IMG/VR virus record: IMGVR_UViG_3300031950_000010
Location: 1-28,633 of that record
Strand: one strand, 5' to 3'
From: a virus
Length of the DNA stretch: 28,633 nucleotides
Under the pieces are notes generated by a model. It was not told the DNA's origin. It saw only the letters and a program-made list of their open reading frames with translations, and searched no databases. The translations under genes and the position numbers were made by a program. Below are positions 1 to 28,633 of this stretch, piece by piece. Position 1 is the first letter of the stretch; every line of letters begins with the position of its first letter.

Positions 1-127
1 GCCGCATCATGGCTACTCAGTCGCCATCTTTCCCGCCGCCGCTCGCGCCGGCAGAGCTGATAGCCTTCTGTGCGCGCGTAGCGCCAGACAGTTGCCTCCA
101 CAACAGCACCATGTCCTGTTTCGGCAC
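1..127. repeat. Terminal overlap, left copy (circular contig)
   Basis: These 127 bases recur exactly at the right end of the window. A terminal repeat of 127 nt equals a common assembler k-mer length, so it is most simply read as the overlap of a circular (or circularly permuted) assembly rather than a biological terminal repeat. It includes the 3' end of the 110-aa gene, which therefore appears twice in the window but once in the genome. Confidence 0.9.
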
Positions 128-349
128 CTCCAGCGCACGGGCCAGCCGGAACGCGAGCGCCATGCGGTTGGTTTCGGCGCTGTACCGTTTGCTGCCCTCC
201 CGCAGAAGCTTCAACGCCATGTTGGCCTTTTCGATGGTTGCATCGTCCATCTGGCCGTCGAGCACAGCACGCACGTCGTTGAGTCCTCTCCGCGCGATGC
301 TGTCCAGCTCGCTGGTCAGAATTATCCCGTCATCTTTCTGGTTTGCCAT
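17..349 (-). CDS. 110-aa helical protein downstream of the Cas12-like gene
   Basis: I do not recognise a family. The protein is predicted to be mostly helical, with a hydrophilic, Gly/Ser/Asp-rich tail (about residues 97-110) and no Cys or membrane segment. The ATG at 349 has a strong Shine-Dalgarno site (GGAGG, 6 nt spacer) inside the last codons of the Cas12-like gene, and the two genes overlap by 20 nt, so translation is probably coupled. It is the last gene before the structured leader and CRISPR-like array on the circular map. Position and coupling make it a candidate accessory subunit or partner of the effector, but it could equally be an ordinary early phage protein. Its 3' end is repeated at the right edge of the window (28523-28633) because of the terminal overlap. 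Confidence 0.75.
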   Translation of the reverse strand: MANQKDDGIILTSELDSIARRGLNDVRAVLDGQMDDATIEKANMALKLLREGSKRYSAETNRMALAFRLARALEVPKQDMVLLWRQLSGATRAQKAISSAGASGGGKDGD

Positions 350-1718
350 TTTCTACCTCCGTGAGTTGATAAGAAATTTCTCTCAAGGCTTCGCGGCGCT
401 TTTTGGCTCGCGCCGACCGCCGGCGCAGCTCGCTCTCTGCCGCCCGCTTGCCAGGCTCGGTTGTCACGTCAGCGCCAGCCGTGACGGTGATGCCATACTC
501 ATCGGCCTTGTACGCCAGCAGCTGGCGGAACTGCGCCGCAGGCCAGGCCAGAGCGCCGATCTCGGCGATCTCGATCGTGCCGACAAGTTGAGATCGGCAC
601 CACTGCACGATATCAGCGGTCCAGCGATGCAGGTAGTCGCGCAGCCAGTCCTGCCAGCCCAGCCGCGCGATCGCCTCGCGCTTTCTACGAGCGTGCCCTT
701 TGCGCCGGCCACATTGTGCCAGTACGCGCCGGCGAATTAGATCCCAGTCATCCGATCGCCGCAGCAGGTACTGATAGCGGTCCGTATAGCACTTAGTCTG
801 CGTCTCGGTGCGGACGAGGAACCTGCCGTCGTCCGTCACAGAGATCACGGCGCGGCGCTCGCCAGGCGGCGGCAGGGGCGGCAGAGTCAGCGGATACGTG
901 ATTCGCACCGTGATGCCGCGCCGCTCGACGTGCACCGTCGCTTTCTTCATTGGGATTTCCCAGCGCAGCATCTTGTCTAGAATCGGTCCCTGCCATTCGT
1001 CGCGCGCGGAACCGCGCTTGATCGGAATTTCGATCCACGATCCGCGCAGATCTTTGTGCGACCGAGCGCGCAGTCTCACCACGTACTCGTCGCCGCGCTT
1101 GACGAGCTGGACGCCGGAGTCCTCGCGCCTCGCCTTGCCGGTGACGGACAAAGCAGCATCTGGTCGCCATTCCGGCAACGGCGCGCCGGCGAGGATGCGC
1201 TTGCCCTCGCGCGTCCACACGCCCTGAACCTCCATCTCCGCAGCGCTGTAGGCGTCGCCCGACAGCTCGCCTTTCTCGCGCTGGCGCACCGCTTTGCTCG
1301 GACCGGCCTTGTCGTCCGGCGCGGACGGGGATGTCCAGCCGTAGGCCTGCGCCCATTTCGCGCGCAACATCATGTTGCGGTAGTGGGCCGCCTGCCATCC
1401 GAGATCGCGCAGCTCGCGATACAGTTCGCGGTGCTCTGCATTGGACCAGTCCAGCGCGGCCCGCAGAGCGAGCACGCGCTGGACGGTCCTCGTCGCCCCA
1501 TTCGGGGCTTGCGACGGCATTTCCGCTGCCACGCCACGCGGCGGGTGCGAACCGCCTCGGTTGATATTTCTTTCGTGGTCGGCGTTTGGCGGTGCCGTCG
1601 CTGGCAAACCGCTGGAGCGCCCCTTGTAGAGCTCGGCGATTTTGCGCTCGATCTCCTGCATTGCTGCCGCCTGGCGCTCCACAGCGCGGAGTGCGAGGTT
1701 AAGGTCAGTTTCCGCCAT
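330..1718 (-). CDS. Miniature Cas12/TnpB-like protein, probably RuvC-inactive (type V effector candidate)
   Basis: This is a 462-aa protein. Residues 1-30 form a short helix, 34-75 are low complexity, and 80-130 are a helical segment with R/W/Y residues as in Cas12f-type recognition regions. Residues 200-280 are basic and beta-rich (wedge-like), and 289-412 are RuvC-like. Compared from memory with Un1Cas12f1, the stretch RRRVLAQCGRRKGHARRK, the helix HRWTADIVQWCRSQLVG and the segments before YGITV follow the same order as RuvC-I to post-RuvC-II. The catalytic residues look lost: RuvC-I has only VTDDG (D296/D297) instead of GIDxG; the RuvC-II stretch reads TIEIAEI, with Ala385 where Glu is expected; and the chain ends in an Arg-rich tail without CxxC zinc ribbon or RuvC-III Asp. 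It starts TGATG-coupled to the 50-aa gene, with GGAG 8 nt upstream. With the array across the circle junction it suggests an RNA-guided binder. The alternative is a domesticated TnpB remnant. Confidence 0.75.
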   Translation of the reverse strand: MAETDLNLALRAVERQAAAMQEIERKIAELYKGRSSGLPATAPPNADHERNINRGGSHPPRGVAAEMPSQAPNGATRTVQRVLALRAALDWSNAEHRELYRELRDLGWQAAHYRNMMLRAKWAQAYGWTSPSAPDDKAGPSKAVRQREKGELSGDAYSAAEMEVQGVWTREGKRILAGAPLPEWRPDAALSVTGKARREDSGVQLVKRGDEYVVRLRARSHKDLRGSWIEIPIKRGSARDEWQGPILDKMLRWEIPMKKATVHVERRGITVRITYPLTLPPLPPPGERRAVISVTDDGRFLVRTETQTKCYTDRYQYLLRRSDDWDLIRRRVLAQCGRRKGHARRKREAIARLGWQDWLRDYLHRWTADIVQWCRSQLVGTIEIAEIGALAWPAAQFRQLLAYKADEYGITVTAGADVTTEPGKRAAESELRRRSARAKKRREALREISYQLTEVENGKPER

Positions 1719-2876: not shown

Positions 2877-3251
2877 TTAGCTGTTGACAGTGGCATCGTC
2901 GCGTCCTTCCCGTTGTTCCGCGCGCGCCAGCTCCGACAGGCGCTCGGCGATCTGAGCCACCTCGGGCGGCCATAGAAGTACGCCACCAGCTGCGGCAGCT
3001 ATCTCGGCCAGATCGCCCCATGCGTTCCCGGCTCGCCAATCATAGCCATTCCGCAGAAATTCCTGGTACCGCATCAGGCGCTGCGCGAGAATCCCTATGT
3101 ACATCGCCGCGAGCACCCCGTAGCGCTCCTCGAGTTCGCGCGCCCGCTCTGATATGTCCTCGTCCGATGCATGAGCTACGACCGCGCCGGTGGCACAGAG
3201 CAACTCCTGCGCGGTCTGACAAATCATCTCGCGGCGGTCCATGAAGGTCAC
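2877..3251 (-). CDS. 124-aa hypothetical early protein
   Basis: Translation most likely starts at GTG 3251, which overlaps the recT stop (GTGA) and has AGGAGG 7 nt upstream; the ATG at 3242 is too far from that site. The protein is largely helical, with an acidic mid-region (DEDISERARELEERYG), a Gly/Ala-rich stretch, and a charged, Glu/Arg-rich C-terminus. It has no membrane segment or metal-binding motif and no family is recognised. It is translationally coupled to recT and so is made with the recombination proteins. Confidence 0.65.
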   Translation of the reverse strand: MTFMDRREMICQTAQELLCATGAVVAHASDEDISERARELEERYGVLAAMYIGILAQRLMRYQEFLRNGYDWRAGNAWGDLAEIAAAAGGVLLWPPEVAQIAERLSELARAEQREGRDDATVNS

Positions 3252-4081
3252 CGCGACGCCTCCTCGCCGCTCACCGCCTCATTCTGGTGCTCGGCAACCG
3301 CCTCGAGCTCGAGCACGGGCTCCTCGCTTAGCGGGTTGTCCTGTGGAATGCCGAGCTCGGCGCGCTCGTCCTGCTCAATGGCCTGCGCCAACTCGATGCT
3401 GATTGGCAGGTATTTGAAGAGCCTGCGAATTACGGTCTTGAGCGACATGGCCTCGTAGTGCGTCTGCCACGGGCCGCTCGTCGCCGATTTGCTCTGCGCG
3501 CGCGCGGCCTCGATTTCGCGACGGGACATCACCTCGAACTGTACGCCGCCATCCTTGAGCTTGGCCACGGCGTAGACGAACCGCAGCTTTTCTGGCTGCG
3601 TGCGGTTCGGATTGTCAAAGTCGGGCACGTGCGTCAAATCGCTGTCCAGCCCGAATTTGACGTCGAACCGATCGCCCTCGTATACCGCGCGCGCCTCGAT
3701 GCTCTGGATCTGCCCGGAGCGCCGCGCCAGGTCGATCATGCCGCGGTAGCCGAGGATGAACTGCACCTCGGTCCGGCCCGCTTTGCGGTTCTCAAACGGA
3801 ACCAGGTAAGCATGACCCAGCGTACCGCCCGGCTCAAGCCCGAGTTGGGCGCAGATCATGATGGCACCGAGAAATGACATCTGATCGCAGCGCGCTAGCG
3901 CCGGATTGCGTCGCACCTCTGTCAGCGCCACGCGCGCCAGCCTGTCCGCCGTGACGTGCCGGGGCAGGGCGAGCGCCATCTGCTGCTTGATTTTGGGATC
4001 GTTGAGTAACGCCGCGATGTCGTTGGTGAGGCGCTGCGGCAGATTGCTGCCTGTCACTGCGGATTTGAGCGCTGTGCTCAT
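3248..4081 (-). CDS. recT: RecT-family single-strand annealing protein
   Basis: This 277-aa protein matches the RecT/Bet-like annealing family in its core: RVALTEVRRNPALARCD, SFLGAIMICAQLGLEPG, HAYLVPF, QFILGYRGMIDLARRSG and the C-terminal Y.AM..KTVIRRL block are characteristic. It coats 3' single strands made by the neighbouring exonuclease and pairs them with complementary DNA in phage recombination and genome circularisation. The true start is the ATG at 4081, overlapping the exonuclease stop (ATGA); the longer frame to 4216 lies inside the exonuclease gene. The acidic C-terminal tail (about 240-277) is typical of proteins that contact host SSB or replication factors. Confidence 0.95.
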   Translation of the reverse strand: MSTALKSAVTGSNLPQRLTNDIAALLNDPKIKQQMALALPRHVTADRLARVALTEVRRNPALARCDQMSFLGAIMICAQLGLEPGGTLGHAYLVPFENRKAGRTEVQFILGYRGMIDLARRSGQIQSIEARAVYEGDRFDVKFGLDSDLTHVPDFDNPNRTQPEKLRFVYAVAKLKDGGVQFEVMSRREIEAARAQSKSATSGPWQTHYEAMSLKTVIRRLFKYLPISIELAQAIEQDERAELGIPQDNPLSEEPVLELEAVAEHQNEAVSGEEASR

Positions 4082-5040
4082 TTCGGCTCCTTGAGAACGA
4101 ACCGGCGAGTGCCGGGTTGGGTGGTGGTGTGCCTCGCGATGAGCTCCGCGGGCACATTGGCCTCGCGGATCACCGCCTCGTAGTCGACGATTTTTCGTGC
4201 TGAGGTGGCGCGCCAAGTAGCAATGGGGCGGCCATGGAGCGTCAGCACACTGCGCTCACCGAGCGCGAGCTTGATGCGTTCAACGGCCGCCTCGTAATCT
4301 CGCTCGGCTTCCGCCATGCGGGTCCGCGCCTCGCGCGCGGCATTGTACGCTGCGATCAGTTCCTCGTCCGCCTCTAGCGACTCTCCGTTGTCGCTGGGCC
4401 ATCCGTGGTCTGCCTCGCGGGCGGTGGATGGAGGGGGAGGGACCCGCGCCAGAACATGATCGCGCCAGAATGTTTCGGCGCGGGCGAACATGGCGGCGAT
4501 GGTCTCATTGTCGCGCTCGATACGCCGCACAACGAGGCGCTGGCCACCGATCAAAGCGGCTACGTCGCACCACGGCAAGCCCGTGATGCCGAGGTACCAC
4601 ATGCACTGCGCTGCGCAGTGCAGCGGAACCGCGTCCGGGTCGTCGCCGCGGCCCCATTCGTGAGCAGCGAATGCGTTGACGGCCTTGCACTCGAGAACGC
4701 CGTCAGCGCCGCGCAGCTCACCGCCGCTCACTCGCGCACGACCGCGCGCCGGCAGCACCACGCGGTCGAGAGTAGCGATCGCCCACTCTCGACCACGCGC
4801 CCTGATCAGCGTGTTGACGCGCTGGATGCGCACACCAGCGCGGGCCGCGTACTCGCGCGCGATGAGGTCCTCGAGCAGCAGCCCCCAACGCATCGACTCT
4901 GTCTCCGGCTGCTCCGCCCCGTCCACCTTGTCGCGGTACACGTCGAGCGGCGTGCGCCACGGACTAAGACCGAGGATGGCGGCGATGTCAGAGCCGCCGA
5001 TGCCGGTGCGGCGGGCCGAGAGCCACTCGTCGCGGTTCAC
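4078..5040 (-). CDS. YqaJ/lambda-exonuclease-type recombination nuclease
   Basis: This 320-aa protein begins with RRTGIGGSDIAAILGLSPWRTP, the signature opening of YqaJ-type viral recombinases. It has the PD-(D/E)XK core: E57 in GLLLEDLIA, then D112 and the E-C-K of GVLECKAVN (about 112-118). The C-terminal 110 residues form a coiled coil plus a small beta domain, an extension often seen in phage homologues. It digests one strand of double-stranded DNA ends 5' to 3' and hands the 3' strand to RecT, encoded immediately downstream with a 4-nt overlap. The start is GTG at 5040 with GGAG 8 nt upstream, overlapping the end of the HTH gene region. Confidence 0.93.
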   Translation of the reverse strand: MNRDEWLSARRTGIGGSDIAAILGLSPWRTPLDVYRDKVDGAEQPETESMRWGLLLEDLIAREYAARAGVRIQRVNTLIRARGREWAIATLDRVVLPARGRARVSGGELRGADGVLECKAVNAFAAHEWGRGDDPDAVPLHCAAQCMWYLGITGLPWCDVAALIGGQRLVVRRIERDNETIAAMFARAETFWRDHVLARVPPPPSTAREADHGWPSDNGESLEADEELIAAYNAAREARTRMAEAERDYEAAVERIKLALGERSVLTLHGRPIATWRATSARKIVDYEAVIREANVPAELIARHTTTQPGTRRFVLKEPK

Positions 5041-26879: not shown

Positions 26880-27889
26880 GTTGCGACGTCCTCACCGCGT
26901 TTTCGGCATGCGCACGGCACGATAGTATCACGGAACTCGTATACCGTCTCGCCGCATCGCGGACACGCGCCGGAGTCTCGCAAATCCCAGCGTGAGTCGT
27001 GAGCATGATTGCTGCGCACCCAATCGGGAAGATCGGTGATGGCCTTCAAGAACAGACCATCGCTCCGCGGTGGTGATGCTCTGGAGCGGTGCCGGATCCA
27101 GCCGAGCACGTACCGCGGATGGATGCCCATGCTGGCAGCCTGCCTGGCGAGCGCGAGCGCCGATCCTGCTCGCGGGGGACGACCAACAGCCGCTGAAATC
27201 TCCTGCTCAACAGCCAGGATCCAGTCCAGATGCCGGCCGATGCTCATGCCGTTGTTGCGATTGTCAACAAACAAAGCCGAGCCGGCAGTTTGCTGATCCG
27301 GATCCGGTGCGGTCGGTTCGGCTGGCTCCGGCTCTGGCTTTGGCTGTGGCTCGGCTACGGCTTGGCTATGGCTATGGCTACGGCTACGGCTACGGCTATG
27401 GCAGTGCGCACACTGTGCGCTCTCCGTGCGCTCGGCGTGCGCATGCTGTGCGCTCGGCGTGCGCTCGGCGTGCGCATGCCGTGTATCTTCCGTGCGCTCG
27501 GCATGCGCACGCCGGTCCGATTTTGCGAGTCTGGATGATCGAGGCGGCCGGCCGTCGGCAAACGACTGGCCCGCCCTGGCGAGCCTGGTGTGGACCGAAT
27601 CCTCGGCATGGTCTGCCCAATCGTGAACCACGAGCCGGTGCTCCTCGTGCGGGTCGAGCAGCCTACACTCGATCAGAGCCTCGATGAGCTCTCGTGACGG
27701 TCGGTCCTCTGGCCAGGCGCAGGCCTCCGCGATCTCGTCATCGGTATAGCGCCCGATGTCGCCGCGCGGGCAGTACTGCGCGGTGAAATGCCAGAGCATC
27801 TCCAGGATGCCCACGGCCCATGCCCGGTTGATCCGGAGCCTGCGCGCAAGCGCGCGAATTTTGGGGTGATCAGGGGTCCCTCGTTTCAC
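26876..27889 (-). CDS. Replication initiator (phage replisome organiser)
   Basis: This is a 337-aa protein. Residues 1-90 (HPKIRALARRLRINRAWAVGILEMLWHFTAQYCPRGDIGRYTDDEIAEACAWP...LIEALIECRLLD) form the winged-helix N-terminal domain of phage replisome organiser/O-like proteins. Residues 120-200 are a low-complexity linker with three 11-residue AHAERT repeats (128-160) and a Ser/Arg/His stretch. Residues 225-300 look like a helical helicase-loader interaction region, and a C-terminal CPRCG/CAC zinc ribbon follows (about 304-330). It starts at GTG 27889 with GAGGG upstream, just after the CRISPR-like array in the transcription direction. Confidence 0.82.
   Translation of the reverse strand: MKRGTPDHPKIRALARRLRINRAWAVGILEMLWHFTAQYCPRGDIGRYTDDEIAEACAWPEDRPSRELIEALIECRLLDPHEEHRLVVHDWADHAEDSVHTRLARAGQSFADGRPPRSSRLAKSDRRAHAERTEDTRHAHAERTPSAQHAHAERTESAQCAHCHSRSRSRSHSHSQAVAEPQPKPEPEPAEPTAPDPDQQTAGSALFVDNRNNGMSIGRHLDWILAVEQEISAAVGRPPRAGSALALARQAASMGIHPRYVLGWIRHRSRASPPRSDGLFLKAITDLPDWVRSNHAHDSRWDLRDSGACPRCGETVYEFRDTIVPCACRKRGEDVAT
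27322..27512. repeat. Iteron-like repeats inside the initiator gene, candidate origin
   Basis: A 21-nt unit beginning GTGCGCTCGGCGTGCGCAT occurs at 27426-27446 and 27459-27479 and, with two changes, at 27492-27512, exactly 33 nt apart. Next to it (about 27322-27402) lie many GGCTAC/GGCTAT-type hexamers. An AT-richer palindrome, TTGTTG...CAACAA, is at 27252-27270. In lambda the origin iterons lie in the linker-coding part of gene O; this layout is closely parallel. Confidence 0.6.
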
Positions 27890-27928: not shown

Positions 27929-28450
27929 CTCGCACTCCACGATGAATCCCGCATTCGATGCGAACCGGTCAAGGAGAGGGGCCGAGTGACCGGCTACCAC
28001 TCGCACTCCACGACAAATCCTTAGGTCGATGCGACGGCCTGACCAGTACAGATCGGGGTAGTAGAAGCCTCGCACTCCACGGCAAACTCCTCATTCGATG
28101 CGACCTGCGCACGGTGGGGCAAATCATCCTCGCACTCCACGATGAATCTTGCATTCGATGCGACGGCGACATTCTGGTTGGCCGGGTGGTTGCCTACCAT
28201 CTCGCACTCCACGATGAATCCCGAATTCGATGCGACGCTGAAACTGCGAACTGGAGGGAAGCAGGAATGATTCTCGCACTCCACGACGAATCCCCCGCTC
28301 GATGCGACGCGCCGTCCATCTCGGGGCAAAAGCGGCACTCGATCTCGCACTCCACGACAAGTTCCCCATTCGTTGCGACACGCGCCAACCACGCCGCACT
28401 TACCTGATCATAAGCTCGCACTCCACGACAAGTTCCCCATTCGTTGCGAC
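27929..28450 (-). CRISPR. Phage-borne CRISPR-like array, eight 36-nt repeats
   Basis: Repeats lie at 27929-27964, 28000-28035, 28069-28104, 28129-28164, 28201-28236, 28273-28308, 28344-28379 and 28415-28450. The seven spacers are 35, 33, 24, 36, 36, 35 and 35 nt and all differ. On the plus strand every repeat begins CTCGCACTCCACG and ends TGCGAC (TGCGAA in the first); the middle 17 positions vary. Read on the minus strand the repeats run GTCGCA...CGTGGAGTGCGAG, with complementary ends (TCGCA/TGCGA), reminiscent of type V-F repeats that begin GTTGCA and end TGCAAC. The last two copies are identical, and degeneracy grows toward 27929, so the leader end is probably at 28450 with minus-strand transcription, the same direction as the Cas12-like gene. 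No adaptation genes are present. This block is the only long stretch without a gene. Confidence 0.88.
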
Positions 28451-28507
28451 GGCCTCTCGGCAACTCATCGTCGCACAGCAGCTTGCGGACGAGAATGCGA
28501 GAGGCCG
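28450..28507 (-). ncRNA. Structured leader with possible anti-repeat (tracr-like) next to the array
   Basis: On the minus strand CGGCCTCTCG pairs perfectly with CGAGAGGCCG (10 bp). After a small internal loop, CTCGTC pairs with GATGAG (one GU), then CGCA with TGCG, closing an 8-nt loop. The segment ACGATGAGTT (plus-strand 28471-28462) can pair with the repeat segments AACTTGTCGT (repeats 7, 8), GATTCATCGT (1, 4, 5) and GATTCGTCGT (6) over 10 positions using 2-3 GU pairs, so pairing survives the repeat variation. It lies between the 110-aa gene and the first repeat. Confidence 0.5.
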
Positions 28508-28633
28508 CCGCATCATGGCTACTCAGTCGCCATCTTTCCCGCCGCCGCTCGCGCCGGCAGAGCTGATAGCCTTCTGTGCGCGCGTAGCGCCAGACAGTTG
28601 CCTCCACAACAGCACCATGTCCTGTTTCGGCAC
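28507..28633. repeat. Terminal overlap, right copy
   Basis: This segment is identical to bases 1-127. It contains the junction side of the leader region and a second copy of the 3' end of the 110-aa gene (28523-28633, minus strand, truncated by the window edge). On the circular genome, base 28506 is followed by base 1. Confidence 0.9.

What the first reader, a model, noticed from the sequence alone, without database searches (positions are those of the whole stretch)
28450..28507. Structured leader RNA with an anti-repeat that tracks repeat variants through GU pairing
Seen: a stem of about 20 base pairs lies immediately before the first repeat, and its ACGATGAGTT segment pairs over 10 positions with the handle part of repeats 1, 4, 5, 6, 7 and 8 (2-3 GU pairs), and also with repeat 2 (more GU); repeat 3 has one mismatch. 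Inference: a tracrRNA-like co-factor encoded with the array. The exact complementarity is only 7 contiguous bases, so chance cannot be excluded.
Basis: partly seen in the sequence, partly recalled or inferred. Interest (0 to 1): 0.75.

Follow-up and report, generated by a model that had tools for sequence, protein, structure and literature searches.

The report
Guide-RNA leader of a dead phage Cas12f
A small bacterial virus carries a shrunken, cutting-dead relative of the gene-editing enzyme Cas12f with its own array of guide RNAs, and just before the array sits a short folded RNA that can pair with the array's repeats and probably helps load the guides.

Summary
On the minus strand a 72-nt non-coding leader (28451-28522) lies between an operon and an eight-repeat CRISPR array. 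It folds, together with the 5' end of the first repeat, into a strong hairpin.

The two segments pair with adjacent halves of the repeat's last 20 bases, in the right order.

Four loci share the layout (two phage contigs and one Chloroflexota genome contig besides the window). The hairpin, its 51-nt spacing and the 36-nt repeat are conserved in all four. The two-part anti-repeat beats chance only in the window and its nearest relative, so it is not shown to be conserved.

The effector is a distant Cas12f (type V-F) relative without an intact nuclease site. Canonical Cas12f loci carry anti-repeats in the same place.

Best reading: a tracrRNA-like leader serving a nuclease-dead, RNA-guided DNA-binding phage protein. 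"Tracks repeat variants through GU pairing" is only weakly supported. No spacer target was found.

The parts
28451..28522 (-). 72-nt non-coding leader between the stop codon of the 110-aa gene and the first repeat (minus direction)
   Evidence: aligned without internal gaps in 4 loci
28498..28512 (-). 5' arm of the leader hairpin
28445..28459 (-). 3' arm of the leader hairpin; last six bases are the 5' end of the first repeat
28472..28491 (-). 20-nt stretch between the two anti-repeat segments, itself able to form a small CGCA/TGCG hairpin
28507..28514 (-). GATGCGGC, complementary to the 5' end of most repeats (GTCGCATC); forms the base of the leader hairpin with repeat 1
27929..28450 (-). CRISPR array: eight 36-nt repeats (left ends 27929, 28000, 28069, 28129, 28201, 28273, 28344, 28415), spacers 24-36 nt
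330..1718 (-). 462-aa Cas12f-related effector; RuvC-I Asp and RuvC-II Glu replaced, third Asp and zinc finger absent
17..349 (-). 110-aa protein of unknown fold, between effector and leader in 4 of 4 loci
28507..28633 (.). 127-nt terminal repeat identical to 1-127: the contig is circular, so effector, 110-aa gene, leader and array are contiguous

Best explanation
The locus is a phage-borne, nuclease-dead offshoot of the Cas12f (type V-F) lineage: effector, a 110-aa partner gene, a 72-nt structured leader RNA and an eight-repeat array, all read in one direction. The leader is most likely this system's tracrRNA equivalent. Proposed working: the operon and array are made as one transcript; the leader folds as a hairpin of fixed size that the effector recognises; its two anti-repeat segments (28492-28501 and 28462-28471) pair with the last 20 bases of each repeat, next to the spacer, as the repeat/anti-repeat duplexes of Cas12f do; the effector with leader and crRNA binds DNA matching the spacer without cutting it and so blocks or recruits another function, perhaps through the 110-aa protein. 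Shown here: the layout, the hairpin and its conservation, the complementarity in the window and L001, the relation to Cas12f, loss of the catalytic residues. Inferred: transcription as one RNA, use of the anti-repeat, DNA binding, the role of the 110-aa protein, the targets.
For: Layout conserved in 4 of 4 loci: window, L001 (87% identical effector), L002 (86%), L132 in Candidatus Roseilinea (54%). Distance from leader CTCGCA to the repeat is 51 nt and repeat length 36 nt in 4 of 4 (sequences; my count). Hairpin core kept by paired changes: in L132 one C-G to G-C flip and one T-A pair lost on both arms, in L002 G-C to A-T. Two-part anti-repeat: top two hits in the window, 0 of 400 shuffles jointly, 0 of 1000 for the last 22 nt, rank 1 genome-wide in the window and in the L001 locus. 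Effector: profile-profile match to six phage Cas12f proteins, E 5.5e-7, probability 92% over 241 columns; PADLOC Cas12f and Cas12u3 for 4 of 4 members; Foldseek on a model made from the three close relatives alone: first 19 rows all Cas12f, E 3.4e-8; on a better model (pLDDT 72.6) AsCas12f E 4.8e-15, VIA rows 1-17 all Cas12f, Z 19.2 to 13.8. Cas12f loci read here carry anti-repeats 3-63 nt upstream of repeat 1 in 5 of 7 arrays tested (L122 first and second array, L124, L125, L127; L123 and L128 less clear), e.g. TTTCGCATTC in L122.
Against: The hairpin and the anti-repeat duplex exclude each other in large part, and the hairpin wins in the window's folds (leader alone -35.9 kcal/mol). The two-part pairing is not above chance in L002 (370 of 1000) or L132 (295 of 1000), rank 193 and 169. 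The duplex-energy test is weak (z -1.80 window, -0.99 L001). A 72-nt leader is short for a Cas12f tracrRNA (PMC10090079 takes 150 nt upstream of the anti-repeat; passages). Effector identity to Cas12f is 16-21%, and profile hits to solved Cas12f are modest (E 0.0057). The second structural model used Cas12f rows in its alignment; the first had pLDDT 52.7. No spacer target found, so targeting itself is unproven.
Confidence: 0.55

Rival explanations
1. The leader hairpin is a cis element (processing site, stabiliser, or insulation of the array from the upstream gene) and the effector uses crRNA alone, as Cas12m does. The complementarity to the repeats is incidental or a relic.
For: The hairpin is conserved in 4 of 4 loci while the anti-repeat is not. 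The hairpin is the minimum-energy state in the window. Cas12m, another dead effector, works without tracrRNA (PMC11013384, passages).
Against: Two adjacent 10-bp matches in the right order are rare by shuffling in the window. Fixed 51-nt length with diverged loop sequence fits a protein-bound scaffold. The effector groups with Cas12f, whose systems use tracrRNA.
Confidence: 0.25
2. The leader acts only in cis with the first repeat: hairpin plus repeat 1 plus spacer 1 is a natural single-guide RNA, and the other repeats use another route or are silent.
For: The hairpin's 3' arm continues into repeat 1 in all four loci, with paired changes there (third base of the repeat: G-C in window, A-T in L132, G-U in L002).
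Against: The repeats of an array share the same 5' end, so the same pairing could form in trans; arrays hold several repeats in each relative.
Confidence: 0.12
3. The complementarity is chance in a G+C-rich leader, and the hairpin is the only real feature.
For: Not seen in L002 and L132. Energy test z only -1.80 and -0.99. Window and L001 leaders are nearly identical, so they count as one observation.
Against: 0 of 400 shuffles reach the joint match and 0 of 1000 the chained score for the last 22 nt; rank 1 genome-wide; the same kind of segment lies at the same place in canonical Cas12f loci.
Confidence: 0.08

Closest known systems
Type V-F CRISPR-Cas12f (AsCas12f1 group; phage loci L122/L076, L123-L125, L127, L128)
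   Same: Effector fold and profile; small array beside the gene; anti-repeat just upstream of repeat 1 pairing with the 3' part of the repeat; repeat end TGGAGTGCGA shared with L122.
   Different: RuvC residues lost, zinc finger gone, extra N-terminal stretch, 36-nt instead of about 30-34-nt repeats, leader of only 72 nt, extra 110-aa gene.
Nuclease-deactivated Cas12f of PDB 9n9c/9n9m (dCas12f-gRNA)
   Same: Dead Cas12f fold; VIA Z 16.7 and 16.3.
   Different: I saw only the PDB titles; from memory (not from any call) those proteins act with a sigma factor. None is seen here.
Cas12m (type V-M)
   Same: Compact dead effector that silences by binding (PMC11013384, passages; PMC10442227, search listing).
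   Different: Uses crRNA alone; lower structural rank here (Foldseek rows 30 and 32).
TldR, TnpB-like nuclease-dead repressors of phages
   Same: Phage-borne, RuvC-dead, RNA-guided in the same superfamily (PMC13418256, abstract and passages).
   Different: Here there is a multi-spacer repeat array and a leader RNA.
Phage Cas9 with inactive RuvC and phage tracrRNA (variant II-C2)
   Same: Phage-coded effector with inactive RuvC and its own tracrRNA (PMC11656645, passages; PMC12669027, section 9).
   Different: Type II effector, thought to sequester host crRNAs.

Membership tests
Type V-F (Cas12f) | effector homologous to Cas12f | tested here: met
   hhalign E 5.5e-7, Foldseek and VIA top rows all Cas12f; by sequence alone weak
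Type V-F (Cas12f) | conserved RuvC residues and zinc finger | tested here: not met
   RuvC-II Glu is Ala in three and Val in L132; RuvC-I Asp is Thr in three, perhaps kept in L132; third Asp and CxxC pairs absent in 4 of 4 (motif identity recalled)
Type V-F (Cas12f) | tracrRNA with anti-repeat in non-coding DNA between effector and array | tested here: inconclusive
   found in window and L001, not above chance in L002 and L132
Type V-F (Cas12f) | acts as a dimer on one guide, PAM-dependent | not testable with these tools
   no complex prediction and no protospacers
tracrRNA | complementarity to the repeats of the adjacent array | tested here: met
   window and L001 only
tracrRNA | repeat/anti-repeat pairing conserved by compensating changes | tested here: not met
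   fixed-geometry pairs: segment C 10, 10, 8, 5 of 10; segment B 10, 10, 4, 6 of 10 in window, L001, L002, L132; only 4 loci
tracrRNA | expressed and required for crRNA function | not testable with these tools
   needs RNA data
CRISPR array | regular repeats with unrelated spacers | tested here: met
   eight 36-nt repeats, spacers 24-36 nt; spacers of window, L001 and L002 do not match one another
CRISPR array | spacers match mobile elements or other targets | tested here: inconclusive
   no match in phages or plasmids; best of 396 genomes E 3.8e-4, chance level for that many genomes
Type V-M (Cas12m) | dead compact effector guided by crRNA alone | tested here: inconclusive
   Cas12m ranks below Cas12f in fold searches; guide requirement untested
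TldR | dead TnpB-like protein with a single guide RNA and no repeat array | tested here: not met
   eight-repeat array present; definition partly recalled

The most novel reading that the evidence does not exclude
A tracrRNA reduced to one roughly 70-nt hairpin of fixed length that serves as a switch: closed when idle, opened onto the repeat as a 20-bp two-part duplex when the guide is loaded. Its wobble-rich anti-repeat lets one leader serve repeats that have drifted apart within one array. It works with a nuclease-dead Cas12f and a 110-aa partner as a phage-coded, multi-target RNA-guided DNA-binding regulator.
Probability: 0.25. Interest if true: 0.78.

Novelty: new variant of a known kind. 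Interest (0 to 1): 0.6.

Why it matters
Nuclease loss in Cas12 lineages has happened repeatedly (PMC12669027, section 9), but a phage that keeps a dead Cas12f with a multi-spacer array and a very short leader RNA would be a natural, compact, multi-target regulator. It would also bear on how tracrRNAs arise and shrink, because leader, repeat and effector can be compared across four loci that differ in how far the pairing is kept.

Tried and rejected
Leader as a coding stretch: frames differ between relatives and hold stops; rejected. Known RNA family: no Rfam match near the leader. tRNA: none. tracrRNA reaching back into the 110-aa gene: codon conservation is flat except for the last 12 columns (0.82, n=17 codon pairs), too few to use.

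Wider search by DNA: 53 stretches with ATCGTGGAGTGCGAG, 29 with the paired handle and 39 with the hairpin pattern gave by tblastn only L001/L022, L002 and the distant L076 (run on all loci then held). Of the 29 stretches I judged five by eye to be arrays: L022, L080, L076, L060, L077; L060 and L077 have repeats of another kind with an internal GCACTCC/GGAGTGC palindrome.

More relatives: none in genome contigs with the first patterns, none in phages or plasmids, none further in viral contigs; in 396 class, 28 order and 400 phylum genomes only G001 (L132's own genome) is a true member. The weak hit G529 is an ordinary TnpA-TnpB pair without array; the two weak hits in G235 were not examined. 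The 110-aa protein: no Pfam, PHROG, PDB or phage match of value; its one weak hit, in G021, lies in an aldehyde-dehydrogenase-like reading frame (name recalled from sequence).

Spacer targets: none beyond chance. Naive counting of paired changes gives 16 of 27 positions; I do not use that figure, because inner positions are not surely homologous and the six core changes in L132 reduce to about two events once a one-base shift of both arms is allowed. Positional agreement of the best chains in L002 and L132 with the window (45 and 46 of 3000 shuffles) was judged post hoc with tolerances I chose, and half of it follows from the conserved CTCGCA, so it is not counted. Literature: ten searches listed no paper that I recognised as describing this family; the library is open-access and most subscription papers are missing.

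Full report
What is there. The window ends repeat over 127 nt, so it is a circular phage contig, and the minus strand reads in one stretch: Cas12-like effector (1718-330), 110-aa gene (349-17, its stop again at 28523), leader (28522-28451), array (28450-27929), then a replication-initiation-like gene (27889-26876). The repeats are 36 nt with constant ends and a variable middle; spacers are 24-36 nt.

The observation. The two repeat halves abut (17-26 and 27-36) and the leader segments follow in antiparallel order with 20 nt between them. Shuffled leaders reach the joint match in 0 of 400 and the chained score in 3 of 1000, or 0 of 1000 for the last 22 nt. Genome-wide on both strands it ranks first, ahead of the complement of the array itself. 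The energy-based test is weaker (z -1.80, 21 of 400).

Relatives. Three other loci share effector, 110-aa gene, leader and array: L001 and L002 on viral contigs and L132 on a Candidatus Roseilinea contig. The four leaders plus first repeats align without internal gaps, and CTCGCA stands 51 nt before the repeat in all four. The hairpin is kept with paired changes. Fold energies against shuffles: z -4.36, -4.19 and -4.44 for window, L001 and L002 with their first repeat, -1.84 for L132. The two-part anti-repeat is clear in L001, whose leader is nearly the same as the window's, but not in L002 (rank 193; 370 of 1000) or L132 (rank 169; 295 of 1000). The hairpin, rather than the anti-repeat, is therefore what conservation supports; the anti-repeat rests on the window lineage.

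Wobble. Repeat positions 17-26 vary in the window by six distinct bases, all transitions, five keeping the pairing; positions 10-16 vary by four transitions and four transversions. In L001 two of four distinct repeats break the pairing. This is a hint, not a demonstration, of tracking.

The effector. Family scans give weak TnpB/Cas12f matches. A repeat-handle search, made without the protein, brought in L076, a phage Cas12f locus whose repeat shares TGGAGTGCGA and whose protein matches the effector at E 0.001 and AsCas12f at 1e-153. With six such phage proteins the profile match is E 5.5e-7. A model from the three close relatives alone (pLDDT 52.7) finds Cas12f in its first 19 Foldseek rows; a model with ten rows, six of them Cas12f (pLDDT 72.6), gives E 4.8e-15 and VIA Z up to 19.2, with residues 81-278 at 2.9 A over 182 residues of AsCas12f. 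The RuvC Glu is lost in all four, the first Asp in three, and the last Asp and zinc finger are missing. It should bind, not cut.

Comparison with Cas12f RNA. Seven arrays of six phage Cas12f loci were scanned in a like way: five have a clear anti-repeat within 63 nt upstream of repeat 1 (L122 both arrays, L124, L125, L127), two are less clear (L123, L128). Published work gives V-F two repeat/anti-repeat duplexes (PMC11246509, passages) and finds V-F tracrRNAs by anti-repeats between effector and array (PMC10090079, passages). The window fits that anatomy in miniature.

Mechanism. I favour a tracrRNA-like leader for a dead Cas12f-like DNA binder at 0.55. The main doubt is that the hairpin is the more stable and more conserved state; a crRNA-only effector with a cis hairpin is the chief rival. 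Function in the cell is open: no spacer target was found, and the 110-aa protein has no known relative.

Filing. It is not a member of V-F proper, since the nuclease site that defines working Cas12f is lost; it is a V-F-derived variant, and dead Cas12 variants are a known trend (PMC12669027, section 9). Hence 'new variant of a known kind', interest 0.6.

Noticed in passing
window 17-349 (-); L001 6373-6702; L002 6242-6577; L132 1572-1880: 110-aa protein with conserved SAETNRMALAFR stretch, always between effector and leader, without a useful match in Pfam, PHROGs, PDB or phages.
   Followed up: partly
L122 (= L076) 2742-2970 and 4547-4648: A phage Cas12f gene flanked by two separate small arrays with different repeats, each with its own anti-repeat upstream.
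   Followed up: partly
window 3248-5040 (-): RecT-like and YqaJ-like recombination genes side by side.
   Followed up: no
window 27330-27514: Short tandem repeats inside the replication-initiation-like gene.
   Followed up: no
L132 1-5476: Candidatus Roseilinea contig that carries the same operon and phage-like neighbours, pointing to a Chloroflexota host for this phage group.
   Followed up: partly
window 330-1718 (-), residues 54-60: RGGSHPP stretch near the N terminus, conserved in 4 of 4 relatives, without Cas12f counterpart.
   Followed up: no
L002 7009-7046: Last repeat of the L002 array is degenerate and runs into the next gene's start.
   Followed up: no
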